NCBI RefSeq assembly: GCF_000424445.1
Contig: NZ_AUJX01000006.1
Coordinates: 1 to 64,000, forward strand
DNA: 64,000 nt
Direction: 5' to 3'
Origin: Oribacterium sp. NK2B42
GTDB lineage: Bacteria > Bacillota > Clostridia > Lachnospirales > Lachnospiraceae
The notes beneath the pieces were generated by a model. The model was not told the origin of the DNA, searched no databases, and saw nothing but the letters and a program-made list of their open reading frames with translations. This document shows positions 18,280 through 57,019 of this stretch, in pieces. The position numbers and the translations under genes were made by a program. Within the stretch, counting starts at the first letter, position 1, and each line of letters begins with the position of its first letter.

Positions 18280-19168
18280 AGATTTTGATCTGACTGCCAT
18301 AGCAGAATCGGGCCAATGTTTCCGCATGACTTCAGTGGGAAACATTAACGAAAAATATCCCGTATATAAAATCGTAGCCTCAGGCAAATGTCTTCTTATC
18401 TCAAGAGACCCTGAAGGTGGACAGGATTCGTATCTCGCAAGCTGCACCGAATCTGAGTGGGAGGACTATTATAAACATTATTTCGATCTCACAACAGATT
18501 ACGAAAGCTACAGAAGCTATGCAGATCCTTCAGATGAATTTCTGAAATCCTGCATGGATTATGGAACCGGCATCCGTATACTTAATCAGGATCCCTGGGA
18601 AATGCTCATAAGCTTTATCATTTCTCAGAGAAAATCCGTGCCTGCCATACGTACAACAGTTGAAAAGCTTTGTGCTCTTGCAGAAGAGGAATGCTTTATT
18701 GACAGCTCTGAGTGGCATGCATTAACCCACGGAATACCGGAAAAGACAACATATTATCCTTTTCCCGATGCAGAGACTCTGGCAGGACTTGATGATCGGG
18801 AGATAGGCTCCACCGGAACGGGCTACCGTACCGGTTACATAATGGAAGCCGCAAGAAAGGTGTCAACTGGAGAGATTGACCTAAAAGCACTTTCCGAAGC
18901 TTCCGATGAAGTGCTCCTGGAAGAATTATTGAAGATTCACGGAGTCGGTATAAAGGTCGCCTCCTGTACAGCACTTTTCGGCTTTCACAGATTATCCCTT
19001 TGTCCGGAGGATGTGTGGATGAAGAGAGTAAAAGAGCAGTTTTACAGAGGCACCTGGCCGGAAAGCTATAAACCGGTCCTCGGAGTGCTCCAGCAATACA
19101 TGTTTTACTATGCAAGACTTGAACATGAAAAAGACAAAATAAAAAGAACCGGAAGAGAGAAACAATGA
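18260..19168 (+). CDS. 8-oxoguanine DNA glycosylase / AP lyase (OGG1 type)
   Basis: 302 residues of the HhH-GPD superfamily, removing 8-oxoguanine opposite C. SGQCFRM (residues 17-23) is the OGG1 base-recognition signature. The helix-hairpin-helix reads LLKIHGVGIKVASC with catalytic Lys232, and the catalytic Asp is Asp251 in CPEDVWMK. The 19-residue Lys-Asp spacing equals that of human OGG1 (249/268). It starts within the M29 gene by a 20-base overlap and overlaps the next gene by 4 bases, so it is translationally coupled on both sides. Confidence 0.9.
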   Translation: MIHLTLKDFDLTAIAESGQCFRMTSVGNINEKYPVYKIVASGKCLLISRDPEGGQDSYLASCTESEWEDYYKHYFDLTTDYESYRSYADPSDEFLKSCMDYGTGIRILNQDPWEMLISFIISQRKSVPAIRTTVEKLCALAEEECFIDSSEWHALTHGIPEKTTYYPFPDAETLAGLDDREIGSTGTGYRTGYIMEAARKVSTGEIDLKALSEASDEVLLEELLKIHGVGIKVASCTALFGFHRLSLCPEDVWMKRVKEQFYRGTWPESYKPVLGVLQQYMFYYARLEHEKDKIKRTGREKQ

Positions 19169-20706
19169 CCAGAAAGAAGCATGGTGGAATACGGTTTTTA
19201 ACCGTGCTCGCCACACTGACAATTTTAATATGTAACCTCATCACGCCTCTTAGTGCCATCAAAGCGTACGCAGCATGGAATTTTCCGTATGTGGAGATCA
19301 ATGCTGAAGCCGGCATCGTTATGGACGCAGATACGGGAGCTGTGCTTTTTCAGAAGAATGCACATACAAAAGAGTACCCGGCTTCCATCACAAAGGTCCT
19401 GACTGCACTGGTAGTGCTGGATAATTGCAAACTTGATGATATGGTCACCTTTTCACATGACGATGTTTACAATGTTGACGCAGGATCCTCCAACGCCCAG
19501 ATAGAAGAGGGCGATACTCTTTCGGTTGAAGACTGTCTCCACGCACTTCTTCTGAAATCTGCCAACGAGGCAGCCAATGCTCTGGCCTGTCATGTCGCAG
19601 GCTCCAGGGAAGCATTTGCGGAAATGATGAATCAAAAAGCTGCAAAGCTTGGATGCACAGACAGCCATTTCACAAATCCTTCAGGTCTTTTTAACGAGAA
19701 TCACTATACAAGCGCCTATGACATGGGTCTTATAGGCATAGCTGCCATGAAAAATGAAGCCTTCATGGAGATCGATTCCCACCTTTCCTATAAGCTGGCA
19801 AGCACCATCCGTAATCCGGATGGCCATACAGTTTATATGGAACACAAAATGCACCGTGATGATACAAAGTACTCCGACAACAGAGTCATTGCAGGAAAAA
19901 CCGGTTATACCATGGATTCCGGCAATACTCTCATCACCATGGCCAGTGAAAACGACAGAAATCTTGTAGCCGTTGTTCTTAAAGATAAGAACCCTGCTCA
20001 CTATACCGATACAAAAGCCATGCTGGACCTCGGTTTCTACAGTACGGAAAACCAGCTTCTGGATCCATCACTCTTCAACATAGAGGATATAAAGAACCGT
20101 CTGATCGCAGATACTATTGTGGATTCCGGATGCACAGCTTCAGACCTTTCCGTAAAGGAACCCATGTATGTGTCATTACCGGTCGGCTCCTCTCAGGAAG
20201 GACTTACCTACAGACTGAACTATAACCTGCCGGATTATGTTTCCGCACACACCATAGCTGAAATAGAATATCTTGCAGACGGTCTCCCCGTGGGAAGATA
20301 TTCTATCGAAAAAGAACCGACAGTCGCCATAGAAACCAGCTCTCAGGAATCCTCCGCTGCGGACGAACAGCCTAAGGAAGCCCTGACCTCCATAAGCGTG
20401 ACCGCAATTGCCGGCGTTGTCGGTGTTGCCATTTTAGCCACATTCGCCGCTCTCGGCATAAAACGTGTGAGAGATTCCCGGAAAATGGCCAGATACATGC
20501 ATGACCGCCGCACCGAACGCCTCAAAGACCTGGACATGTCCGAAGAGGAATTCATGGAAGTCCTTCAGATCCGCAGATCCCAAAAGAACCAAAACCACAA
20601 CAATCACAATACAAATTTCAATAACAATCGTTACGACCACTACGACCAAAATAATATAACCAATCGCAAAAACATCAGCCGTGGCCGTAAAGACCATCGG
20701 ATGTAA
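19165..20706 (+). CDS. D-alanyl-D-alanine carboxypeptidase (S11, PBP5/DacA type)
   Basis: 513 residues. It trims the terminal D-Ala of peptidoglycan stem peptides. A signal/anchor segment lies at about 9-35. The active-site triads are Ser74-x-x-Lys77 (ASITK), Ser132-Ala-Asn134 and Lys245-Thr-Gly. A beta-rich C-terminal domain is followed by a membrane span (about 410-432) and a cytoplasmic tail ending in an Asn/His-rich low-complexity stretch (NQNHNNHNTNFNNN). The single-span C-terminus, in place of an amphipathic helix, and the Asn-rich tail are unusual for PBP5. Last gene of the 15210-20706 run. Confidence 0.92.
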   Translation: MTRKKHGGIRFLTVLATLTILICNLITPLSAIKAYAAWNFPYVEINAEAGIVMDADTGAVLFQKNAHTKEYPASITKVLTALVVLDNCKLDDMVTFSHDDVYNVDAGSSNAQIEEGDTLSVEDCLHALLLKSANEAANALACHVAGSREAFAEMMNQKAAKLGCTDSHFTNPSGLFNENHYTSAYDMGLIGIAAMKNEAFMEIDSHLSYKLASTIRNPDGHTVYMEHKMHRDDTKYSDNRVIAGKTGYTMDSGNTLITMASENDRNLVAVVLKDKNPAHYTDTKAMLDLGFYSTENQLLDPSLFNIEDIKNRLIADTIVDSGCTASDLSVKEPMYVSLPVGSSQEGLTYRLNYNLPDYVSAHTIAEIEYLADGLPVGRYSIEKEPTVAIETSSQESSAADEQPKEALTSISVTAIAGVVGVAILATFAALGIKRVRDSRKMARYMHDRRTERLKDLDMSEEEFMEVLQIRRSQKNQNHNNHNTNFNNNRYDHYDQNNITNRKNISRGRKDHRM

Positions 20707-20757: not shown

Positions 20758-20807
20758 TATCATCCTCTACTGCTATATTAAAATTATCTGGTAAATAGCC
20801 AAAATCA

Positions 20808-20962
20808 GAAAATGCAAGGGATGTGCGGCTAGGCTTGCGAGTTGAAAGAACAGACGGTACAGAATTGTCCGAACAGAATGCACGTCAGTGCATACTGGGC
20901 GAACAATTCTGTGCCGGATGTACTTTCAATCTCGTGGGCCGTCGCGCATCCCTTGCATTTTC
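20808..20962. ncRNA. structured repeat element, copy 1 (155 nt), undescribed family
   Basis: The outer stem is 16 bp and perfect (20808-20823 with 20947-20962). The conserved 5' core is GCGGCTAGGCTTGC, GAG, TTGAAAG, AACA. The 3' core is TGTA, CTTTCAA, T, CTCG, TGGGCC, GTCGCG. CGAG-TTGAAAG pairs with CTTTCAA-T-CTCG around a one-base bulge. The central hairpin (CGGTACAGAATTGT with ACAATTCTGTGCCG) carries a tip ATGCAC-GTCA-GTGCAT. Copies at 46504 and 52460 share the core but not the arms. It could be a small RNA or a hairpin-type mobile element. Strand not determined. Confidence 0.65.
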
Positions 20963-20993
20963 GTCCGGCTTGATATAACATATAGAGGACAGC

Positions 20994-21292: not shown

Positions 21293-22486
21293 ATGAAACT
21301 GAAGAAAATCTTATCATTAGGTCTTGCTGCAGCAATGACTGCATCACTTGCTGCCTGCGGTGGAGCATCAGCAGGCGGAAATTCAGGAAGCGGTGCAAGT
21401 GCAGGGGGAGACGTTATCAAGATCGGTGTATTTGAGCCCACAACCGGTGAGAACGGCGGCGGCGGATTCCAGGAGGTGCTTGGTATTCGTTATGCAAACG
21501 AAACTCACAAGACAGTCAAGATCGGTGACAAGGAGTATACAATCGAACTTGTAGAGGTAGATAACAAGTCAGATAAGACTGAGGCAGTAAATGCAGCCAA
21601 CAAGCTTATGGGCGAGAAGGTTTCCGTAGTTTTAGGTTCTTACGGTTCAGGTGTTTCCATAGCAGCCGGACAGATCTTTGCGGATGCCAAGGTTCCTGCC
21701 ATAGGATGCTCATGTACAAACCCTCAGGTTACTCAAGGAAATGAATATTACTTCAGAGTATGCTTCCTGGATCCGTTCCAGGGTACTGTAATGGCTAACT
21801 ACGCTATGCAGAACGGCTATAAGAGCGCAGCCGTGCTTACACAGCTTGGAGATGACTATTCATCAGGTCTCGGTTCCTACTTTAAGACTGCTTTCACAGA
21901 GCTTGGAGGAACAGTAGTTGATGAGGAGCAGTTCCAGACAAACCAGACAGATTTCAAGGCGGTTCTTACAAACATCAAGGCTGCAAATCCTGACGTAATA
22001 TTCGCTCCTTCATCCATTACTACAGCACCTCTCATCATCAAGCAGGCAAGAGAGCTTGGTATCACAGCTCTTATCGCCGCAGGTGATACATGGGAGAACT
22101 CAACCATCATTGAGAACGCAGGAGCCGACGCAGAGGGCGTAGTACTTTCAACCTTCTTCGATGAGGCTGAACCTGCCAATGCAGAGGCCGAGTCATTTAT
22201 CAAGGGCTTCAAGGAGTACTTAAAGTCAAATGATCAGTCAGACATCATCCCTGCAGTATCCGCTCTCGGATATGACGCTTACCTTGCAGCATACAATGCC
22301 ATCGAGAAGGCACAGTCAACAGACGGCGAGGCTATAAAGGATGCTCTCAAGACTGTATCATTTGACGGTGTTACAGGTGCTGTTTCTTTCAACGAAGAGG
22401 GTGACGCAAACAAGGATATGGCATTTATCAAGACCATCCAGGATGGTGCATTTAAGTTCCTTACAACCACAACCATTAACAGCTGA
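21293..22486 (+). CDS. livJ: branched-chain amino acid ABC transporter, substrate-binding lipoprotein
   Basis: 397 residues, type I periplasmic-binding fold. A lipoprotein signal peptide is clear: MKLKK, a hydrophobic run, and lipobox SLAAC with Cys22, followed by a Gly/Ser-rich tether. IKIGVFEPTTGENGG and DNKSDKTEAVNAANKLM are typical of LivJ/HAAT proteins. It captures Leu/Ile/Val (or a related amino acid) outside the membrane and delivers it to the permease genes downstream. AGGAGG precedes the start. Two hairpins lie between it and the permease gene, consistent with high expression of the binding protein. Confidence 0.93.
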   Translation: MKLKKILSLGLAAAMTASLAACGGASAGGNSGSGASAGGDVIKIGVFEPTTGENGGGGFQEVLGIRYANETHKTVKIGDKEYTIELVEVDNKSDKTEAVNAANKLMGEKVSVVLGSYGSGVSIAAGQIFADAKVPAIGCSCTNPQVTQGNEYYFRVCFLDPFQGTVMANYAMQNGYKSAAVLTQLGDDYSSGLGSYFKTAFTELGGTVVDEEQFQTNQTDFKAVLTNIKAANPDVIFAPSSITTAPLIIKQARELGITALIAAGDTWENSTIIENAGADAEGVVLSTFFDEAEPANAEAESFIKGFKEYLKSNDQSDIIPAVSALGYDAYLAAYNAIEKAQSTDGEAIKDALKTVSFDGVTGAVSFNEEGDANKDMAFIKTIQDGAFKFLTTTTINS

Positions 22487-45658: not shown

Positions 45659-45720
45659 GGTCTACACAGAATCGATTATGGACTATACTCGATTTGCACA
45701 TCCAATTTGGAGGTAAAATC

Positions 45721-46458
45721 ATGGCAGAAGCAATCAAAGGCGCGATCCACAGCATTGAAACCTTCGGATCTGTAGATGGTCCCGGAGTAAGATATATAGT
45801 ATTCCTAAAAGGCTGCAATATGCGTTGCCGCTATTGCCATAATCCCGATACCTGGGATTTCACAAGCGCTGATATGCGAACAGCAGACGAAATCCTTAAC
45901 AATGCTGTTCGCTACCGTGAATACTGGGGAGAAGATGGCGGCATCACAGTAAGCGGCGGAGATCCGCTGGTACAGATAGACTTTGTCATTGACCTGTTCG
46001 AAAAAGCCAAAGCCATGGGCATATCCACCTGCCTTGACACCTCCGCCCAGCCCTTTACAAGAGAAGAACCCTTCTTCAGTAAATTCAACCGCCTCATAAA
46101 AGTCACCGACACAGTCCTTTTCGACATCAAAGAAATCGATGACGAAAAACACAAAAAGCTCACCGGTCATACCAACAAAAACATCCTTGACTGCTGTACC
46201 TACCTTAGCGAGCAGGGAGTCGACCTATGGATACGCCACGTCCTCGTCCCAGGCCTCACCGATTCCGACGAAGAACTCATTGCCACCAAAGCCTTCATCG
46301 ACACCCTGAAAACCGTAAAAAAAGTCGAAATCCTCCCTTACCACACCCTGGCGCTCTACAAATACGAAAAGCTCGGCCTGAAATACACCCTTGCCGACAC
46401 CCCCACTCCGAGTCCTGACCTTATAAATCACGCCGAAGAAATACTTGGTATAAAGTAA
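45721..46458 (+). CDS. pflA: pyruvate formate-lyase activating enzyme (radical SAM)
   Basis: 245 residues. Generates the glycyl radical on PflB using S-adenosylmethionine and a [4Fe-4S] cluster bound by Cys32-x3-Cys36-x2-Cys39 (CNMRCRYC). GSVDGPGVRYIVFLKGC and VSGGDPLVQ are typical of PflA. AATTTGGAGG upstream selects the ATG at 45721; the open frame extends 9 codons further. The 3' third is noticeably C-rich at third positions (AACACCC-type codons) compared with neighbours. Confidence 0.96.
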   Translation: MAEAIKGAIHSIETFGSVDGPGVRYIVFLKGCNMRCRYCHNPDTWDFTSADMRTADEILNNAVRYREYWGEDGGITVSGGDPLVQIDFVIDLFEKAKAMGISTCLDTSAQPFTREEPFFSKFNRLIKVTDTVLFDIKEIDDEKHKKLTGHTNKNILDCCTYLSEQGVDLWIRHVLVPGLTDSDEELIATKAFIDTLKTVKKVEILPYHTLALYKYEKLGLKYTLADTPTPSPDLINHAEEILGIK

Positions 46459-46503
46459 ATTTCAAAGGTACTTCATAATTACCTTCCGGTAGCGAAAACG
46501 GAA

Positions 46504-46658
46504 GAAAATGTAAGGGATGTGTGGCTAGGCTTGCGGCTTGAAAGAACATCGAAAGCAAAAATCCGTGCAGAACGAACGCGTAAGCGTCCGAGCTGCACGG
46601 ATTTTTGATTGAGATGTACTTTCAACGCCGTGGGCCGCCACGCGTCCCTTGCATTTTC
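46504..46658. ncRNA. structured repeat element, copy 2 (155 nt), undescribed family
   Basis: The outer stem GAAAATGTAAGGGATG pairs with the 3' arm ending GCATTTTC and continues through GTGTGGC with GCCACGC; U-G pairs replace C-G pairs of copy 1. The core is CTAGGCTTGC, GGC, TTGAAAG, A, ACAT, matched by ATGT, A, CTTTCAA, C, GCC. The central stem is 15 bp and perfect (CAAAAATCCGTGCAG with CTGCACGGATTTTTG). Its tip is ACGC-GTAA-GCGT, a GNRA-type loop. It sits between pflA and the ATPase gene. Confidence 0.68.
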
Positions 46659-46733
46659 TGTACCATTTCACCACCCTCCGTGATAAAATAGTTATTAGTT
46701 ATTTCAGTGAATTTCAATCATGGGGAGGAACAT

Positions 46734-48293
46734 ATGCTATATAACAACACCATCTGGGCCGGCCTTGACATGGATACCAACGAAAAAGTATGTATACTGC
46801 CGCGCATGGCCAACAGACACGGACTCATCGCCGGAGCCACCGGCACAGGCAAGACGATAACATTAAAGGTACTTGCCGAATCATTCAGCAACATGGGCGT
46901 TCCGGTATTTCTTTCCGACATAAAAGGCGATCTTTCCGGAATGATCAAGCCCGGAGTTGACAACGCAAACATGCAGGAACGCATTCAGTATTTCGGCCTT
47001 GATAAAGAAGGCTTTACATATCAGAACTTCCCTACACAATTCTGGGATATAAGCGGCAAAAAAGGTCTGCCCCTGAGAACCACCGTAAGTGAATTCGGAC
47101 CCACTTTACTTTCCCGTATCCTTGGGCTCACAGATCTTCAGACCAATATCCTCACAATCATTTTCCGTATTGCAGATGAAGAAAACCTTCTTTTGCTGGA
47201 TACCAAGGATCTTCGCTCCATGGTTCAGTATGTAGCCCAGAACAACAAAAAATACAGCTCACAGTACGGCAACATGACCACCGCTTCCCTTAACGCCATT
47301 CTCAGATCCATCGTAGCACTGGAAACAGCAGGAGCGGATAAATTCTTCGGTGAGCCCGCTATCGATATTCATGATTTCTTCAGACAGGACAGCGACGGAA
47401 GAGGAATGATCAATATCCTTGAAGCAGAAAGCACCGTACAGAATCCTGTGATTTACGCAACCTTCATGCTCTATATGTTATCCGAGCTTTTTGAGCAGCT
47501 TCCGGAGGTAGGAGACCGGGATAAGCCTAAGATGGTTTATTTCTTTGACGAGGCTCATTTATTGTTTAATGATGCCCCCAAGGCTCTTGTGGATAAGATC
47601 GAGCAGGTTGTTAAGCTCATACGTTCTAAGGGTGTAGGTATCTTCTTTATCACCCAGAATCCAAGTGATGTTCCTGACTCCGTTCTGGCACAGCTCGGAA
47701 ATAAGATCCAGCATGCATTGCATGCCTATACACCGTCCGAAGAAAAGAAGGTAAAAGCAGCTGCAGATTCATTCAGAGTGAATAAGAACTTCAATACAGT
47801 CGAAGTTCTCCAGAACCTGGGAACCGGAGAAGCCCTTATTTCATTCCTGGATGAAGACGGTAAACCTGACAATGTAAGACGCTGCCGTGTATTGCCTCCT
47901 CAGTCGCTGATGGGACCTGCTGATGATTCATCAAGACTCATGGTCATGAATTCTTCTGATTTTGCAGAAAAGTACAGTGAAGAAGTTGACAGAGATTCTG
48001 CCTATGAATTCTTCAAGAGACTTACCGATGAAGCAACTGCGGAAGCTGCCAGAATCGAAGCGGAGAAGCAGGCTGAAAAGGATGCGGAAGCCCTTGCAAA
48101 GGCACAGGCAAAGGCAAACAAAGAGAAAATGACCGCTGTCAAGTCCGTCGGTCGTTCAACAGCCGGAACCCTGGGAAGAGAAGCCGGCGGAGCCATCGGA
48201 AAAACCTTCCTGGGCACCTTCGGAAAGCGAGTAGGCGGCAATATCGGAGCTGCTCTCGGAAGAGGCCTTCTGGACACATTCTTTAAAAGCTGA
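46734..48293 (+). CDS. HerA/YjgR-like ATPase (DUF853)
   Basis: 519 residues. FtsK/HerA-type P-loop ATPase: Walker A GATGTGKT at 34-41, Walker B VYFFDEAHLLF, sensor segment GIFFITQNPSDVPDSVLAQL. The length and LSDIKGDLSGM match YjgR/DUF853 proteins, proposed DNA-translocating ATPases of unclear role. The C-terminal 70 residues are an Ala/Lys/Glu coiled segment, then a Gly-rich tail (GREAGGAIGKTFLGTFGKRV). GGGGAGGAA precedes the ATG at 46734. No nurA or mre11 partner is nearby. Confidence 0.88.
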   Translation: MLYNNTIWAGLDMDTNEKVCILPRMANRHGLIAGATGTGKTITLKVLAESFSNMGVPVFLSDIKGDLSGMIKPGVDNANMQERIQYFGLDKEGFTYQNFPTQFWDISGKKGLPLRTTVSEFGPTLLSRILGLTDLQTNILTIIFRIADEENLLLLDTKDLRSMVQYVAQNNKKYSSQYGNMTTASLNAILRSIVALETAGADKFFGEPAIDIHDFFRQDSDGRGMINILEAESTVQNPVIYATFMLYMLSELFEQLPEVGDRDKPKMVYFFDEAHLLFNDAPKALVDKIEQVVKLIRSKGVGIFFITQNPSDVPDSVLAQLGNKIQHALHAYTPSEEKKVKAAADSFRVNKNFNTVEVLQNLGTGEALISFLDEDGKPDNVRRCRVLPPQSLMGPADDSSRLMVMNSSDFAEKYSEEVDRDSAYEFFKRLTDEATAEAARIEAEKQAEKDAEALAKAQAKANKEKMTAVKSVGRSTAGTLGREAGGAIGKTFLGTFGKRVGGNIGAALGRGLLDTFFKS

Positions 48294-51035: not shown

Positions 51036-51060
51036 TAAATCATGTCTTATGGAGGTAACT

Positions 51061-52314
51061 ATGATCAAGGAAGTGATGAACTATATAACCCAGGCAGATC
51101 CTGAGGTTGGAAAGTTGATTGCTATGGAGTATGACCGTCAGCAGAACAACATCGAGCTTATAGCGTCTGAAAACATTCTGTCAGACACATCCATGCTGGC
51201 TATGGGCACGATCCTTACAAACAAATATGCTGAAGGATACCCCGGAAAACGTTATTACGGCGGCTGCGTACACGTAGATGATATCGAGACCATCGCTATC
51301 GAAAGAGCCAAGAAGCTTTTTAACTGCGAGTATGCCAATGTTCAGCCCCATTCAGGTGCTCAGGCAAATATGGCAGTAACCATGGCAATCTGTAAGCCGG
51401 GCGACAAGATCCTCGGCATGTCACTGGATGCCGGAGGACACCTTACTCATGGTTCACCTGCAAACTTCTCAGGCAGTTTCTTCAATATCATTCCTTATGG
51501 TGTTAATGATGACGGCTTCATAGATTATGACGAGCTGGAGGCTACAGCTCTCCGTGAGAAGCCAAAGATGATCATTGCCGGAGCTTCTGCTTATCCCAGA
51601 ATCATTGATTTCAAGAGATTCCGTGAGATTGCAGATAAGTGCGGTGCTGTATTATGGGTTGATATGGCTCATATCGCAGGTCTTGTGGCAGCCGGAGTTC
51701 ATCCGTCACCTATTCCTTATGCTCATGTAGTTACCACTACAACCCACAAGACTCTCCGAGGACCAAGAGGAGGTCTCATCCTTTCAAACGAAGAGATCGC
51801 AAAGCAATACAACTTCAACAAGGCTGTTTTCCCCGGATGCCAGGGCGGTCCTCTTGAGCATGTTATCGCTGCCAAGGCTATCTGCTTCGGCGAAGCATTA
51901 AAGCCTGAGTTTAAGACTTATCAGGAGCAGATCGTTAAAAACTGTAAGGCTCTTGCAGAGGCTATGGTTGCCCAGGGCTTCAAGCTTGTTTCAGGCGGCA
52001 CAGACAACCACTTAATGCTTGTTGACCTCACAAATATTCCTGAGCTTACCGGCAAGGTTCTCCAGAACAACTGCGACGAGGTTCACATCACTCTTAACCG
52101 TAATGCTATTCCTAACGATCCTCGTTCACCTTTCGTTACTTCCGGTGTCCGTATCGGTACAGCTGCCGTTACCACCAGAGGTTTCAAGGAGGAGGACATG
52201 AAGCCTATCGCTGAGTGCATCTGGAAGGTTGCCACCGACTTCGAGAACTCCCGCGACGAGGTCATCGCCAAGGTTGCCGAGCTCACCAGGAAGTACCCGA
52301 TTTACGAGGGCTAA
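51061..52314 (+). CDS. glyA: serine hydroxymethyltransferase
   Basis: 417 residues, PLP enzyme that interconverts serine and glycine with tetrahydrofolate. The PLP Lys is Lys230 in [16 protein letters not shown]-terminal [11 protein letters not shown] and [16 protein letters not shown] are invariant features. GGAGGT immediately before the ATG at 51061 is preferred over an in-frame ATG 4 codons upstream that overlaps it. Third-position codon use is biased, as expected for a highly expressed gene. Confidence 0.97.
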
Positions 52315-52459: not shown

Positions 52460-52618
52460 AGAATTCGGTGCATGGGTGTGGCTAGGCTTGCTGCTTGAAA
52501 GAACATGGAGCAAAAAAAGTCCGCCAGAGATGAACACGTAAGTGTCCAGCTCTGGCGGACTTTTTTTGCGGAATGTACTTTCAACGCCGTGAGCCGTCAC
52601 GCCCGTGCACCGAATTCT
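52460..52618. ncRNA. structured repeat element, copy 3 (159 nt), undescribed family
   Basis: The outer arms (AGAATTCGGTGCA with TGCACCGAATTCT) are unrelated in sequence to copies 1 and 2 but pair perfectly, then continue TGGGTGTGGC with GCCGTCACGCCCG. The core is CTAGGCTTGC, TGC, TTGAAAG, A, ACAT, matched by ATGT, A, CTTTCAA, C, GCC, GTGAGCC. The central stem is 20 bp and perfect, with runs of seven A and seven T. Its tip is ACAC-GTAA-GTGT. It sits between glyA and the converging activator gene and may also terminate both. Confidence 0.68.
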
Positions 52619-52636
52619 GACCGGGGAGCCAACGCC

Positions 52637-55600
52637 TTACGCCTGCTCCTTCAGCTTATTCTGCGCAACAGTGAGCATCAGCTTGATACGGTTAAGCTGA
52701 TTGACTTCGGAGGCTCCTGCATCGTAGTCTACGGCGATTATATTGGCGTCAGGATTGTGCTTCTTCAGCTCCTTGATGACACCCTTTCCGACGATGTGGT
52801 TCGGCAGACATCCGAAAGGCTGGGTACAAACGATGTTGTTTACTCCTTCATCCATGAGCTCCAGCATCTCACCGGTAAGGAACCAGCCCTCGCCGGTCTG
52901 GTTGCCGATGGAAACATATTCTCTGGCCATCTTTGCAAGCTCTTTGATCTCTCCGGGAGGAGTGAATCTCTTGGACTTGGCAAATTCCTTACGGGCCGTT
53001 TTTCTGAAATACTCCAGAAGGTTTATGGCACAGTTACAAAGTGCCTTGCCCTTCCAGCCGGCGCCCAGATTCTCATATTTGAAGTTCTGATTATAGAAGC
53101 AGTAAAGCAGGAAATCCATAAGATCCGGCATTACAGCTTCAGCGCCTTCTTTTTCAAGAAGTTCAACAATATGGTTATTGGCAAGAGGGGAGAACTTAAC
53201 AAGTATCTCACCGACAATGCCTACCTTAGGTTTAACAACACCTTCCTTTAATGGAAGATTATCAAAGTCTCTTATGATCCTCTTTACATTCTTTGAGAAG
53301 AGGTACATAGAGGTTGTCTTCTTTGAGACAGCCGCCTTGCATACCTTAAGCCACTTCTGGTGTAATGCTTCTGCAGAACCGGGAACCGCTTCGTATGGCC
53401 TTGTGGCATACAAGGCTCTCATAAATACGTCTCCGTAAACCACCGCCTGCATGGCTCTGGTCAGAAGCGGGAGAGTAAGCTTGAATCCCGGGGTTGACTC
53501 CATGCCGTTGGTATTGAGGGAAATAACAGGTATCTGTGACATTCCCGCATGTTCAAGGGCACGGCGTATAAATCCTATGTAGTTTGATGCACGACATCCG
53601 CCTCCTGTCTGGGTCATTATGACAGCAGTTTCATCAGGATTGTACTTTCCTGAGTTAAGAGCCTCCATGATCTGTCCCACAACTATGATGGAAGGATAGC
53701 AGGCATCATTATTTACATACTTAAGTCCTGTGTCTATGGCTGAACGGTTAGCATTATTCAATACTATAAGGTTATAGCCTGCGGCACGGAAGGCTGCTTC
53801 AACAATCTCAAAATGTATAGGAGACATCTGAGGACAGAGGATGGTATAGTTCTTTGCCTTCATCTCCTTGGTGAAGAGTCTTCTCTCATAATTTGCCGGA
53901 CGGACATTACGTACGTAATTTCTTTCGTCCCTTACTCTGATGGCTGCGATAAGGGATCTTACTCTTATACGTGCAGCACCGAGGTTATTAACCTCATCAA
54001 TCTTAAGGACAGTGTAAATCTTATCAGATCCTGTGAGAATGTCTCTGACCTGATCCACCGTCACGGCATCAAGTCCGCATCCAAAGGAATTGAGCTGTAT
54101 AAGGTCAACGTCTTCTCTTTGTTTTACAAACTCGGCAGCTCTGTAAAGTCTTGTGTGATACATCCATTGGTCTGTAACGATGATGGGACGCTCCACCTGT
54201 CCGAGATGGGATACGGAATCTTCCGTAAGCACCGCAAAATCATAGCTGGTGATAAGCTCCGGAATTCCATGGTTTATCTCGGGATCCACATGATAAGGTC
54301 TTCCTGCAAGAACTATTCCCCTGTGTCCGGTTTCCTTCATCCAGTGAAGAGTTTCCTCACCCTTTTTCTGCATATCCTCATGGGCACGCTCAAGTTCAAG
54401 CCATGCTTCATGGGCTGCAGCTCTGACTTCATCCTCAGTGATATTCCATGATCTAAACTGTTCTATGATCTTGTCTTCAGTAAGCTCACCCACAGGGCGG
54501 ATGGAATGCTCCATATCGTCGCCATGTATGAAGATCCTTACCAGCTGATCGGTACAGATTTTCTCGTCCGTAAAAGCCAGGAAAGGCTTCATGAACATAA
54601 CAGAGTTATCCTCCAGGCCTTCTACATTATTTTTGATGTTCTCGGCATAGGAGGTAACCATGGGGCAGTTATAGTGATTTCCTGCATCAGGAGTTTCATT
54701 ACGTTCATAAGGTATGCATGGATAGAATATGAATTTCTGTCCGTTTCTTATGAGCCATTCGATATGTCCGTGAACGATCTTTGCAGGATAGCACTCGGAT
54801 TCCGAAGGTATACTCTCTATTCCAAGCTCGTAAATCTTTCTGGTACTTGCAGGAGAGAGAACAGTTCTGAACTTTAATTCTCTGAAGAAGGTAGCCCAGA
54901 AAGGATAGTTCTCATACATATTGAGAACCCTCGGTATACCTACTTCACCGCGCACTGCGATATCCTGAGGCAGCGGCTCATAGTCGAACATTCTCTTAAG
55001 CTTGTATTCGTAAAGATTCGGAATATCCCTCTTAATCTTGGTTTTTCCGAGACCTCTTTCACAGCGGTTTCCGGAAATGTAATTACGACCGGCACCGAAC
55101 TGATTAACTGTCAGAACGCAGTGGTTGTTGCAGCCCTGGCAGCGGGTCATCTTTGTTGTGTATTTAAGGTTAATGATTTCGTCCAGTGGCAGCATGGTAG
55201 TCTGAACACGGCCGTAAGCTGTACGGGGAACCTTTATTTCCTCTGTAGGCTTCATCTTTTTGATCTTTTCATTTGCCATGTGATATCTTTCACGGGCAAT
55301 GAGAGCGGCACCAAAGGCACCCATGATTCCGGCGATGTCAGGTCTTACCACATTAGCTCCCAAAAGATTCTCAAAAGCACGGAGCACCGCATCATTGTAG
55401 AAGGTTCCGCCCTGAACAACGATGTGTTCGCCCAGATCCTTGGCTTCTGTAACCTTTATAACCTTAAAAAGGGCATTCTTGATAACTGAGTATGCAAGAC
55501 CTGCGGAGATATCATTAACAGTTGCACCTTCCTTCTGTGCCTGTTTTACGTTGGAATTCATGAAAACAGTACATCTGGAACCAAGATCCGTAGGATTTTC

Positions 55601-57019
55601 GGCAAAAAGCGCAGCATGGGCAAAATCTATAACCGAATAGTCCAGGGATTTTGCAAATGTCTCCAGGAAGGAACCGCAGCCGCTGGAGCAGGCCTCGTTA
55701 AGCTGTACGGAATCAACTGTGCCATCCTTGATGCGGATGCACTTCATGTCCTGTCCGCCGATATCCAGTATGCAGTCCACCTTAGGATCAAAGAATGAAG
55801 CGGCATAGTAGTGGGAAATGGTCTCTACCTCCCCCTCGTCCAGCTGGAAGGCAGCCTTAAGCAGGGCTTCACCGTATCCTGTGGAGCAGCTGTAGGCGAT
55901 GCGGGCATCTTTCGGAAGGAGATCCCGTATCTCTTTCATGGATTCTATCGCTGTTGCGATAGGAGATCCGTTGTTGTTTCTGTAAAATCTGTAAAGAAGT
56001 TCACCCTCTTCGGATACAAGGGCAAGCTTTGTGGTAGTGGAGCCCGCATCTATACCGAGATAAACATTACCATGGTACTGTGAAAGGTCGGCAGTCCGTA
56101 CCTTTGCTTTGTCATGACGGGCGCTGAACTTCCTGTATTCTTCCTCATTCCCGAAGAGAGGCTCCATTCTCTTTATCTCTGCATCCATCTTGATTCCGTT
56201 ACGGAGCATATTGATAAGCTGAGAGACAGATTCTTCCTTTGCATCTTCAGGGCAGTTAAGACAGGAGCCTATGGCAGCAAAAAGATGGCTGTTTTCAGGC
56301 TCTATAATTTCGTCACCCTGGAGATTCAGAGTACGTATAAATGCTTTTCTTAATTCAGGCATGAAATGAAGAGGACCGCCTAAAAATGCAACGTGTCCTC
56401 TGATGGGCTTACCCTGGGCAAGACCCGATATGGTCTGATTCACCACCGCCTGGAAAATAGATGCGGCAAGATCCTCACGGGCTGCACCTTCATTTATAAG
56501 CGGCTGAATGTCGGTTTTTGCAAAAACGCCACATCTTGCGGCGATAGGATATATCATCTGATAGTCCTTTGCGAGAACATTAAGCCCTGCAGCATCTGTA
56601 TGAAGAAGCGATGCCATCTGGTCAATGAAGGAACCCGTTCCTCCTGCACAAATTCCGTTCATTCGCTGGTCGATTCCACCCTTAAAATAAATGATCTTGG
56701 CATCCTCTCCACCAAGCTCTATAGCCACATCCGTATCCGGCCGGTAAGCCTTCAATGCTGTCGCAACGGCCACAACCTCCTGACAGAAGGCTGCATCCAT
56801 ATGTTTACTGAGAGTAAGTCCTCCGGACCCCGTAACCACTGTAGAAAGGCTCATCTCTCCCAACTGCTTTTTTGCTTCCTCAAGGATATCCGCAAGAGTC
56901 CCCTGAATATCCGCATGATGACGACGATAATCAGAAAACAGGAGCTTCTCATCCTGATCCATGATCGCAATCTTGACAGTTGTCGAACCTATATCAATTC
57001 CAAGTCTGTTTTTCTGCAT
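52637..57019 (-). CDS. 2-hydroxyacyl-CoA dehydratase activator/reductase fusion (BadF-type x2, DUF2229, D-component)
   Basis: 1460 residues. Domain 1 (about 5-255) is an ASKHA ATPase, [10 protein letters not shown], with candidate cluster Cys124 ([10 protein letters not shown]) and Cys163 ([10 protein letters not shown]). Domain 2 (about 318-580) repeats it: [14 protein letters not shown], Cys444/448 (ACSSGCGSF) and Cys483 (SRCTVF). A Cys-rich segment follows (CQGCNNHC, 627-634, and Cys653), then a DUF2229-like domain with KIVHGHIEW, and a C-terminal region like the dehydratase D-subunit ([16 protein letters not shown]). Such fusions use ATP to push electrons at very low potential. The substrate is unknown. 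A GGGG-type ribosome site precedes the ATG. Confidence 0.9.

What the first reader, a model, noticed from the sequence alone, without database searches (positions are those of the whole stretch)
46504..46658. Three-copy 155-159 nt structured element with covarying stems: candidate undescribed RNA or mobile hairpin family
Copies at 20808-20962, 46504-46658 and 52460-52618 share a core, 5' GTGYGGCTAGGCTTGC then TTGAAAG-A-ACA, and 3' TGTA-CTTTCAA then GTGRGCCGYC. The outer arms, the stem beside the core (CGAG/CTCG against CGGC/GCCG), the central stem and the tip stem (ACGC/GCGT against ACAC/GUGU) differ in sequence but still pair, often through G-U intermediates. Conserved loops with compensatory stem changes are the hallmark of a selected RNA or ssDNA structure. 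All three lie between genes in an otherwise ordinary core region. Function and family are unknown to me.
Basis: partly seen in the sequence, partly recalled or inferred. Interest (0 to 1): 0.85.

Follow-up and report, generated by a model that had tools for sequence, protein, structure and literature searches.

The report
Nested hairpin repeats in Oribacterium
The three hairpins belong to a family of about 160-base folded repeats, not described as far as I could find, that is scattered through the genomes of some Oribacterium bacteria, keeps its fold while its sequence changes, and nests copies inside one another; it is most likely a mobile DNA parasite whose mover is unknown.

Summary
The window lies in an Oribacterium genome (Lachnospiraceae) with at least 23 intact dispersed copies, plus nested and broken ones. 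A covariance model finds the family in 9 of 17 genomes of the genus and 0 of 24 other relatives. In 64 distinct copies, 44 of 61 pairs change on both sides (524 cells against 141 in shuffles); no Rfam family matches. One strand carries the fold: G-U 317 cells against A-C 27. The element is modular: the inner hairpin can be a terminator-like stem, be replaced by another copy, or by a second structured repeat ("X"), which within the genus occurs in the same nine genomes. At some orthologous sites the inner helix is swapped on both arms at once. The window copies show no promoter; copies in this genome show no bias to gene or GC-skew direction. Best reading: a non-autonomous mobile palindromic element of REPIN-like kind that acts as a folded single strand, some copies probably serving as terminators. 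Y1 (IS200/RAYT) transposases do not track with it, so the mover is unknown. A discrete RNA is possible but unsupported. Movement itself is not shown: no clean empty site with a target duplication was found.

The parts
20807..20966 (+). copy 1, between a D-Ala-D-Ala carboxypeptidase-like gene (19165-20706) and a periplasmic binding protein gene (21293-22486)
   Evidence: model R1 155 bits; sequence; flanking genes by Pfam
46503..46662 (+). copy 2, between a pyruvate formate-lyase activase gene (45694-46458) and a HerA-like ATPase gene (46734-48293)
   Evidence: model R1 128.8 bits; fold z = -15.85; genes by Pfam and NCBIfam
46503..46525 (+). copy 2, outer left arm; pairs with 46637-46659
   Evidence: fold, consensus pairs
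46526..46527 (+). copy 2, TA bulge in the core
   Evidence: fold; alignment A3
46528..46534 (+). copy 2, GGCTTGC; forms U-G, U-G, G-U against GTGGGCC at 46630-46636
   Evidence: A3 columns 31/141 UG 49 of 64, 32/140 UG 64 of 64, 33/139 GU 64 of 64
46538..46548 (+). copy 2, TTGAAAG-A-ACA, base of the inner hairpin; pairs with 46615-46625
46554..46609 (+). copy 2, inner hairpin with a terminator-like A-run, stem, T-run
   Evidence: sequence, by eye; one terminator-like scan match inside it at 46586-46602 (shuffles of the region give 0.5 on average)
46637..46659 (+). copy 2, outer right arm
52460..52621 (+). copy 3, between convergent genes: glyA (51049-52314, +) and an acyl-CoA dehydratase activase-like gene (52637-57019, -)
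   Evidence: model R1 131.7 bits; genes by Pfam and NCBIfam
52510..52569 (.). copy 3, central stem with A-run and T-run, readable by eye as a terminator in both directions
   Evidence: sequence; related core at the orthologous site in G011, G014, G016, G010 and G015; the simple scan (loops up to 8) called no terminator here

Best explanation
The three hairpins are copies of a non-autonomous, dispersed palindromic DNA element. Shown: it is a composite of an outer hairpin (A) and an inner hairpin (B); it folds best on one strand; pairing is kept although sequence changes; copies and a second repeat nest in one another; at some fixed sites the inner hairpin differs wholesale between species. Inferred: it spreads when its + strand is single-stranded and folded and is handled by an enzyme supplied in trans; the conserved wobble run, the bulge and the TTGAAAG-A-ACA / TGTA-CTTTCAA base are the recognised parts, while the rest of the stem only has to pair. 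Homologous exchange across the conserved bases, or repeated insertion there, swaps inner hairpins. Some copies have a terminator-like stem as core and probably end transcription for neighbouring genes.
For: At least 23 intact dispersed copies in the genome. A match in 9 of 17 genus genomes, none in the other 8. 44 of 61 pairs with double changes, 524 such cells against shuffled mean 141, 0 of 500 shuffles as high; slid structures give 89-108. G-U 317 against A-C 27 of 4073 cells; 140 against 27 of 3881 without the three conserved wobble pairs. + strand folds better in 64 of 64 with RNA and with DNA parameters. No gene-orientation bias among tandem contexts, 10 against 7. X inside A-B and a whole copy inside older arms at two G013 loci. 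At the C3:72472 site 11 of 12 changed pairs are double changes, G000 against G013. Tip loops C(GNNA)G in 36 of 64, third base pyrimidine in 24, and C(GNA)G in 5, which suits DNA better than RNA GNRA loops (loop preference recalled; not found).
Against: No clean empty site with a target duplication: of the five differing sites aligned, three are palindrome deletions that leave arm stumps, one (C33:23244 in G013) has a plain terminator-like hairpin instead, one (C4:113788 in G013) is rearranged. Several sites are shared between species, so recent movement is not shown. No mobilising enzyme identified; Y1 transposases do not co-occur and no other enzyme family was tested. Over all twelve orthologous comparisons double changes (45) hardly exceed the rest (42), and C3 supplies 25 of the 45. 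G-U pairs and tandem G-A would suit RNA too.
Confidence: 0.55

Rival explanations
1. A structured RNA family: the hairpins act as RNA, as small RNAs or 3' UTR parts bound by a protein or cut by RNase III, and spread by duplication.
For: Single-strand polarity, U-G/G-U run with two invariant pairs, tandem G-A/A-G in place of Watson-Crick pairs in 22 of 64, some copies close to gene 3' ends.
Against: No sigma-70-like site at the window copies, no preferred orientation to genes, copy 1 lies between two terminator-like hairpins, tip loops not limited to GNRA. Single-strand polarity does not separate RNA from single-stranded DNA.
Confidence: 0.2
2. Host elements for ending or protecting transcripts: large bidirectional terminators, duplicated for that use.
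For: Copies 2 and 3 have terminator-like cores by eye; a related core stands at the glyA site in five other genomes; at the C33:23244 site G013 has a plain terminator-like hairpin instead. 21 of 23 intact copies adjoin at least one gene 3' end, but any tandem gap does, so this is weak.
Against: The common core type has no T-run in the inner stem (alignment); copy 1 sits beside other terminator-like hairpins; does not explain the conserved wobble run, bulge, nesting or patchy presence in the genus. The scan called a terminator inside copy 2 only, not in copies 1 and 3.
Confidence: 0.12
3. No selection on structure: long palindromes kept perfect by template switching or by exchange between arms and between copies.
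For: Wholesale double changes at the C3 site, an inverted core at the glyA site and arm deletions show that such events happen.
Against: Copying one arm onto the other would erase the conserved wobble pairs and the unpaired core bases, and would not give G-U over A-C on one strand.
Confidence: 0.08

Closest known systems
REPINs (paired REP sequences thought to be moved by RAYT / TnpA-REP)
   Same: Dispersed intergenic elements folding into one long hairpin in single-stranded DNA, variable middle with compensatory changes (PMC3116915; abstract and passages seen).
   Different: About 160 bases against 71 bases between the two 16-mers of a GI REPIN; a complex conserved interior; GT[AG]G near the foot in only 4 of 64 copies; carriers G009, G010, G015, G016 have no Y1 match and G014 none with an open frame over 151 aa.
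Nested palindromic repeats of Volvox organelle genomes
   Same: Short palindromes inserted into each other, making larger composite repeats (PMC2670323, passages seen).
   Different: Eukaryotic organelles, single palindromes of 11-79 bases; no conserved interior of this kind in the passages seen.
BOX elements of pneumococcus
   Same: Modular boxA/boxB/boxC intergenic repeats with stem-loops (modularity recalled; PMC3049150 seen only as a listing with the start of its abstract).
   Different: No comparison with BOX was made here.
MITEs
   Same: Non-autonomous, inverted ends, many copies (definition recalled).
   Different: No target duplication shown; outer arms differ in sequence between copies, for example copy 3 and C16:33198.
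Integron attC sites
   Same: Recognised by fold rather than sequence (recalled).
   Different: Not tested: cassette arrays, attC motifs and integron integrases were not looked for.

Membership tests
REPIN | long hairpin of inverted repeats, dispersed between genes, compensatory changes | tested here: met
REPIN | GTAG or GTGG tetranucleotide 0-2 nt 5' of the hairpin foot (definition from PMC6006769 passages) | tested here: not met
   GT[AG]G close to the foot in 4 of 64 copies on the + strand and 1 of 64 on the other
REPIN | RAYT (Y1 transposase) in the same genome | tested here: not met
   PF01797: no match in carriers G009, G010, G015, G016; matches in carriers G000, G007, G011, G013, G014 and in non-carriers G001, G005, G008, G012
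MITE moved by a DDE transposase | constant terminal inverted repeats and target site duplication | tested here: inconclusive
   arms are inverted but vary in sequence; no clean empty site among five aligned
any Rfam family | score above gathering threshold | tested here: not met
   window: only 4 tRNAs; permissive search round copy 2: six matches, all far below gathering; 14 loci with element, X or G253 hairpins: only an RNase P neighbour
intrinsic terminator | GC stem followed by a T-run, ending transcription | tested here: inconclusive
   terminator-like cores by eye in copies 2 and 3; the scan calls one within copy 2 and none within copies 1 and 3; termination itself not testable here
attC site | recombined by an integron integrase as a folded strand | not tested
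   no search made
IS110 bridge RNA | adjacent IS110 recombinase | tested here: not met
   the gene beside copy 2 is HerA-like; the gene beside copy 3 has a borderline IS110-domain match (29.3 against 29 bits) in an acyl-CoA dehydratase activase-like protein; the genes beside copy 1 have none; genes beside other copies were not scanned

The most novel reading that the evidence does not exclude
A new class of modular mobile element whose unit is a folded single strand: hairpin cassettes (A, B, X and the further insert Y) that are recognised by shape at their bases, plug into and replace one another, and so build larger composites, moved by an enzyme that is neither an IS200 nor a RAYT transposase; with relatives in at least one other Lachnospiraceae genus.
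Probability: 0.25. Interest if true: 0.85.

Novelty: new variant of a known kind. Interest (0 to 1): 0.6.

Why it matters
I know of few bacterial repeat families (recalled) that show conserved pairing, single-strand polarity and nesting together. Within the genus the same nine of 17 genomes carry both A-B and X, so a trans-acting factor could be sought by comparing gene content, and the orthologous hairpin differences are a natural record of how folded repeats exchange. If it moves without an IS200 or RAYT enzyme, it would extend the REPIN kind beyond its known mover.

Tried and rejected
IS110 bridge RNA: the gene beside copy 2 is HerA-like. Y1 transposase as mover: PF01797 does not track with the element; G009 and G011 are only 73% and 77% complete. 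Phage or plasmid origin: A-B has no match in plasmids or phages, X none in phages (X was not searched in plasmids), and exact patterns have none in IMG/VR. Relatives outside the genus: the genome contigs pattern scan gave 23 stretches, 13 Oribacterium and 10 scattered; the 10 have no model match (0 of 10, against 3 of 3 Oribacterium loci given to the same call), so they are taken as chance. Among 397 family genomes (an even sample, only 7 candidates scored in each) three matched: our own; G106, a long hairpin without the core, probably false; and G253 (34 bits), kept as a lead. GC-skew direction as a proxy for replication: 10 of 23 positive, no bias. X in front of A-B: 1 of 39 copies examined, besides the mutS sites of G015 and G016. 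A target duplication for X: TTTGGTGA stands on both sides in G010 at the mutS site, but its left copy reads as the end of the upstream gene and the site is rearranged in relatives, so it is not claimed. A tRNA joined to the half copy in L022: seen by eye, but ARAGORN and Rfam find none.

Full report
OBSERVATION. The three copies are at the stated places and fold as single long hairpins; copy 2 has z = -15.85 against shuffles. Rfam has nothing above threshold in the window except four tRNAs.

COPY NUMBER AND RANGE. blastn with copy 2 gave 42 matching stretches in the 3.79 Mb genome, partial and opposite-strand ones included. A covariance model from 16 copies of that genome (R1) lists 23 intact distinct sites there and has matches in 9 of 41 genomes; all nine are among the 17 of the genus, 0 of 24 others (stricter filters). 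The genus is Oribacterium: contig lengths tie G013 to Oribacterium sp. KHPX15 and G014 to Oribacterium sp. P6A1. Of 23 pattern hits in genome contigs 13 are Oribacterium; the 10 others have no model match. A sample of 397 genomes of the family, with 7 candidates scored in each, gave our own genome, one probable false hit and one weak lead.

STRUCTURE. I aligned 64 distinct copies, the best strand of each of 65 fetched loci of which one, a deletion stump, had no match. They come from eight of the nine carriers (23 of them from our genome, 16 from G013) and are a choice from more copies. G007 was examined by eye only. With the structure predicted from the same alignment, 94.9% of cells pair (shuffled 81.0), 44 of 61 pairs change on both sides (25.4), and 524 cells are double changes (140.9), with 0 of 500 shuffles as high; sliding the partner by 1-3 columns gives 89-108. 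Relatedness can inflate the shuffle control; the slid control keeps relatedness but favours a structure derived from these sequences. On the model alignment Watson-Crick cells are 3551, G-U 317, A-C 27 and other 178 of 4073; without the three conserved wobble pairs G-U is 140 and A-C 27 of 3881. That asymmetry means that one strand, + as drawn, is the folded one. It folds more stably than its complement in 64 of 64 copies with RNA and with DNA parameters; the strand was chosen by model score, so this is not fully independent. In 22 of 64 copies G-A and A-G stand where others have Watson-Crick pairs. In a G007 copy, read on its complement, the inner base is TTCAAAG/CTTTGAA instead of TTGAAAG/CTTTCAA with much of the core kept (by eye).

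MODULES. The element has an outer hairpin A and an inner hairpin B. In L016 and L027 a second repeat, X, lies between the outer and the inner stem; in L025 it stands in place of the inner one. X has matches in 9 of 17 genus genomes, the same nine as A-B; it was not sought in genomes outside the genus. It also stands alone, for example before mutS and before 16S rRNA genes on three G015 contigs (the 16S part confirmed for one, L074). At the mutS site of G015 and G016 an A-B hairpin stands where X has its last hairpin, and a further two-hairpin insert lies inside X (by eye).

EVOLUTION AT FIXED SITES. I aligned ten orthologous sites between our genome (G000) and G011 and/or G013 and counted changed pairs in twelve comparisons, as double/single/broken or unpaired: C3 11/0/1, 5/2/1 and 9/2/2 (three comparisons); C14 7/3/1; C5:20807 6/2/2; C16:44767 3/0/4; C24 3/1/8 (G013) and 0/1/2 (G011); C1:243439 1/1/1; C9 0/4/4; C6 and C7 none. 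The sum is 45 double against 42 other, and C3 supplies 25 of the 45. So wholesale exchange of the inner helix is clear at C3, likely at C14 and C5:20807, and not clear elsewhere. At two G013 loci a whole copy sits between remnants of an older inner base, GTTAGAAAAG and TTTCAAT; both share that sequence, so they may not be independent. At the glyA site (copy 3) the core is inverted in G000 relative to G011 and G014, and G013 has half of the old core plus a new copy (by eye). At the copy 1 site G011 keeps only the right arm, next to unrelated sequence. These facts suit hairpin exchange by recombination, acting with selection on pairing.

SITES. With crude ORF calls, 23 intact copies stand as 10 tandem codirectional, 7 tandem opposite, 4 convergent and 2 divergent; some neighbouring ORFs are short and doubtful. 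Orientation to genes (10 against 7, p = 0.63) and to local GC skew (10 of 23, p = 0.68; a weak proxy for replication) shows no bias. No sigma-70-like site was found at the window copies.

FUNCTION. Copies 2 and 3 have terminator-like cores by eye; the simple scan calls one within copy 2 only. In G015 the arms at the glyA site have decayed while the terminator-like core stays; G007 has a plain terminator-like hairpin there (by eye). At C33:23244 G013 has a terminator-like hairpin instead of the element. So termination is a probable side use, not the reason for the family.

MOVER. PF01797 (Y1 transposase) has no match in carriers G009, G010, G015 and G016 and matches in carriers G000, G007, G011, G013 and G014 and in non-carriers G001, G005, G008 and G012. 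No other enzyme family was tested. The mechanism is therefore inferred from REPINs, which share the long hairpin and compensatory changes (PMC3116915, passages) but differ in foot motif and enzyme (PMC6006769, passages).

WHAT IS NOT SHOWN. Movement itself, a target duplication, any transcript, any bound protein, and whether RNA or DNA is folded in the cell. Preference for DNA rests on absent promoters at the window copies, absent orientation bias, the dispersed and nested habit, and tip loops of the C(GNNA)G and C(GNA)G type (36 and 5 of 64), whose stability in DNA I recall and did not find in print.

A LEAD OUTSIDE THE GENUS. G253, of another genus of the family, has four related loci that fold as long hairpins with a conserved interior of their own (by eye). 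One shares TTGTCCGAATGGGGCG with the B apex of the L010 copy at the same structural place. The model score is weak (34 bits) and an unrelated long hairpin scored more (G106, 79 bits), so I treat it as a lead.

LITERATURE. Searches for Oribacterium with palindromic repeats or repetitive elements, and for nested palindromes in bacteria, listed no description of this family; the library holds open-licence papers only.

Noticed in passing
L027:2013-2140 (-), L016, L025, L090, L074: X, a second multi-hairpin repeat of about 115 bases, in the same nine genus genomes as A-B; in G015 it lies beside 16S rRNA genes on three contigs.
   Followed up: partly
L265, L268, L267 (mutS upstream region): A further two-hairpin insert (Y) inside X, with differing but apparently paired stems in G009, G015 and G016 (by eye).
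   Followed up: no
L259-L262 (G253): Long hairpin family in another Lachnospiraceae genus with a repeated GTNCG / RCGNAC internal motif, possibly related to the B apex.
   Followed up: partly
G000 contig ends: Of 30 Y1 transposase matches in our genome at least 14 are cut by a contig end: an IS200-type element probably breaks the assembly.
   Followed up: no
L209, L210, L212: Stumps left by deletion of one arm and the loop of the palindrome.
   Followed up: yes
L022: 3' half of an element directly joined to a sequence that looks by eye like part of a tRNA on the other strand; ARAGORN and Rfam find no tRNA there.
   Followed up: yes
L213 (G013:C53): Repeated units (ATATGAGTCAATG..., by eye) where G000 has a copy.
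   Followed up: no
window 52637-57019 (-): Acyl-CoA dehydratase activase-like protein of 1460 aa whose N-terminus just passes the Pfam cut-off for an IS110 transposase domain (29.3 against 29 bits), perhaps a shared-fold cross-match.
   Followed up: no
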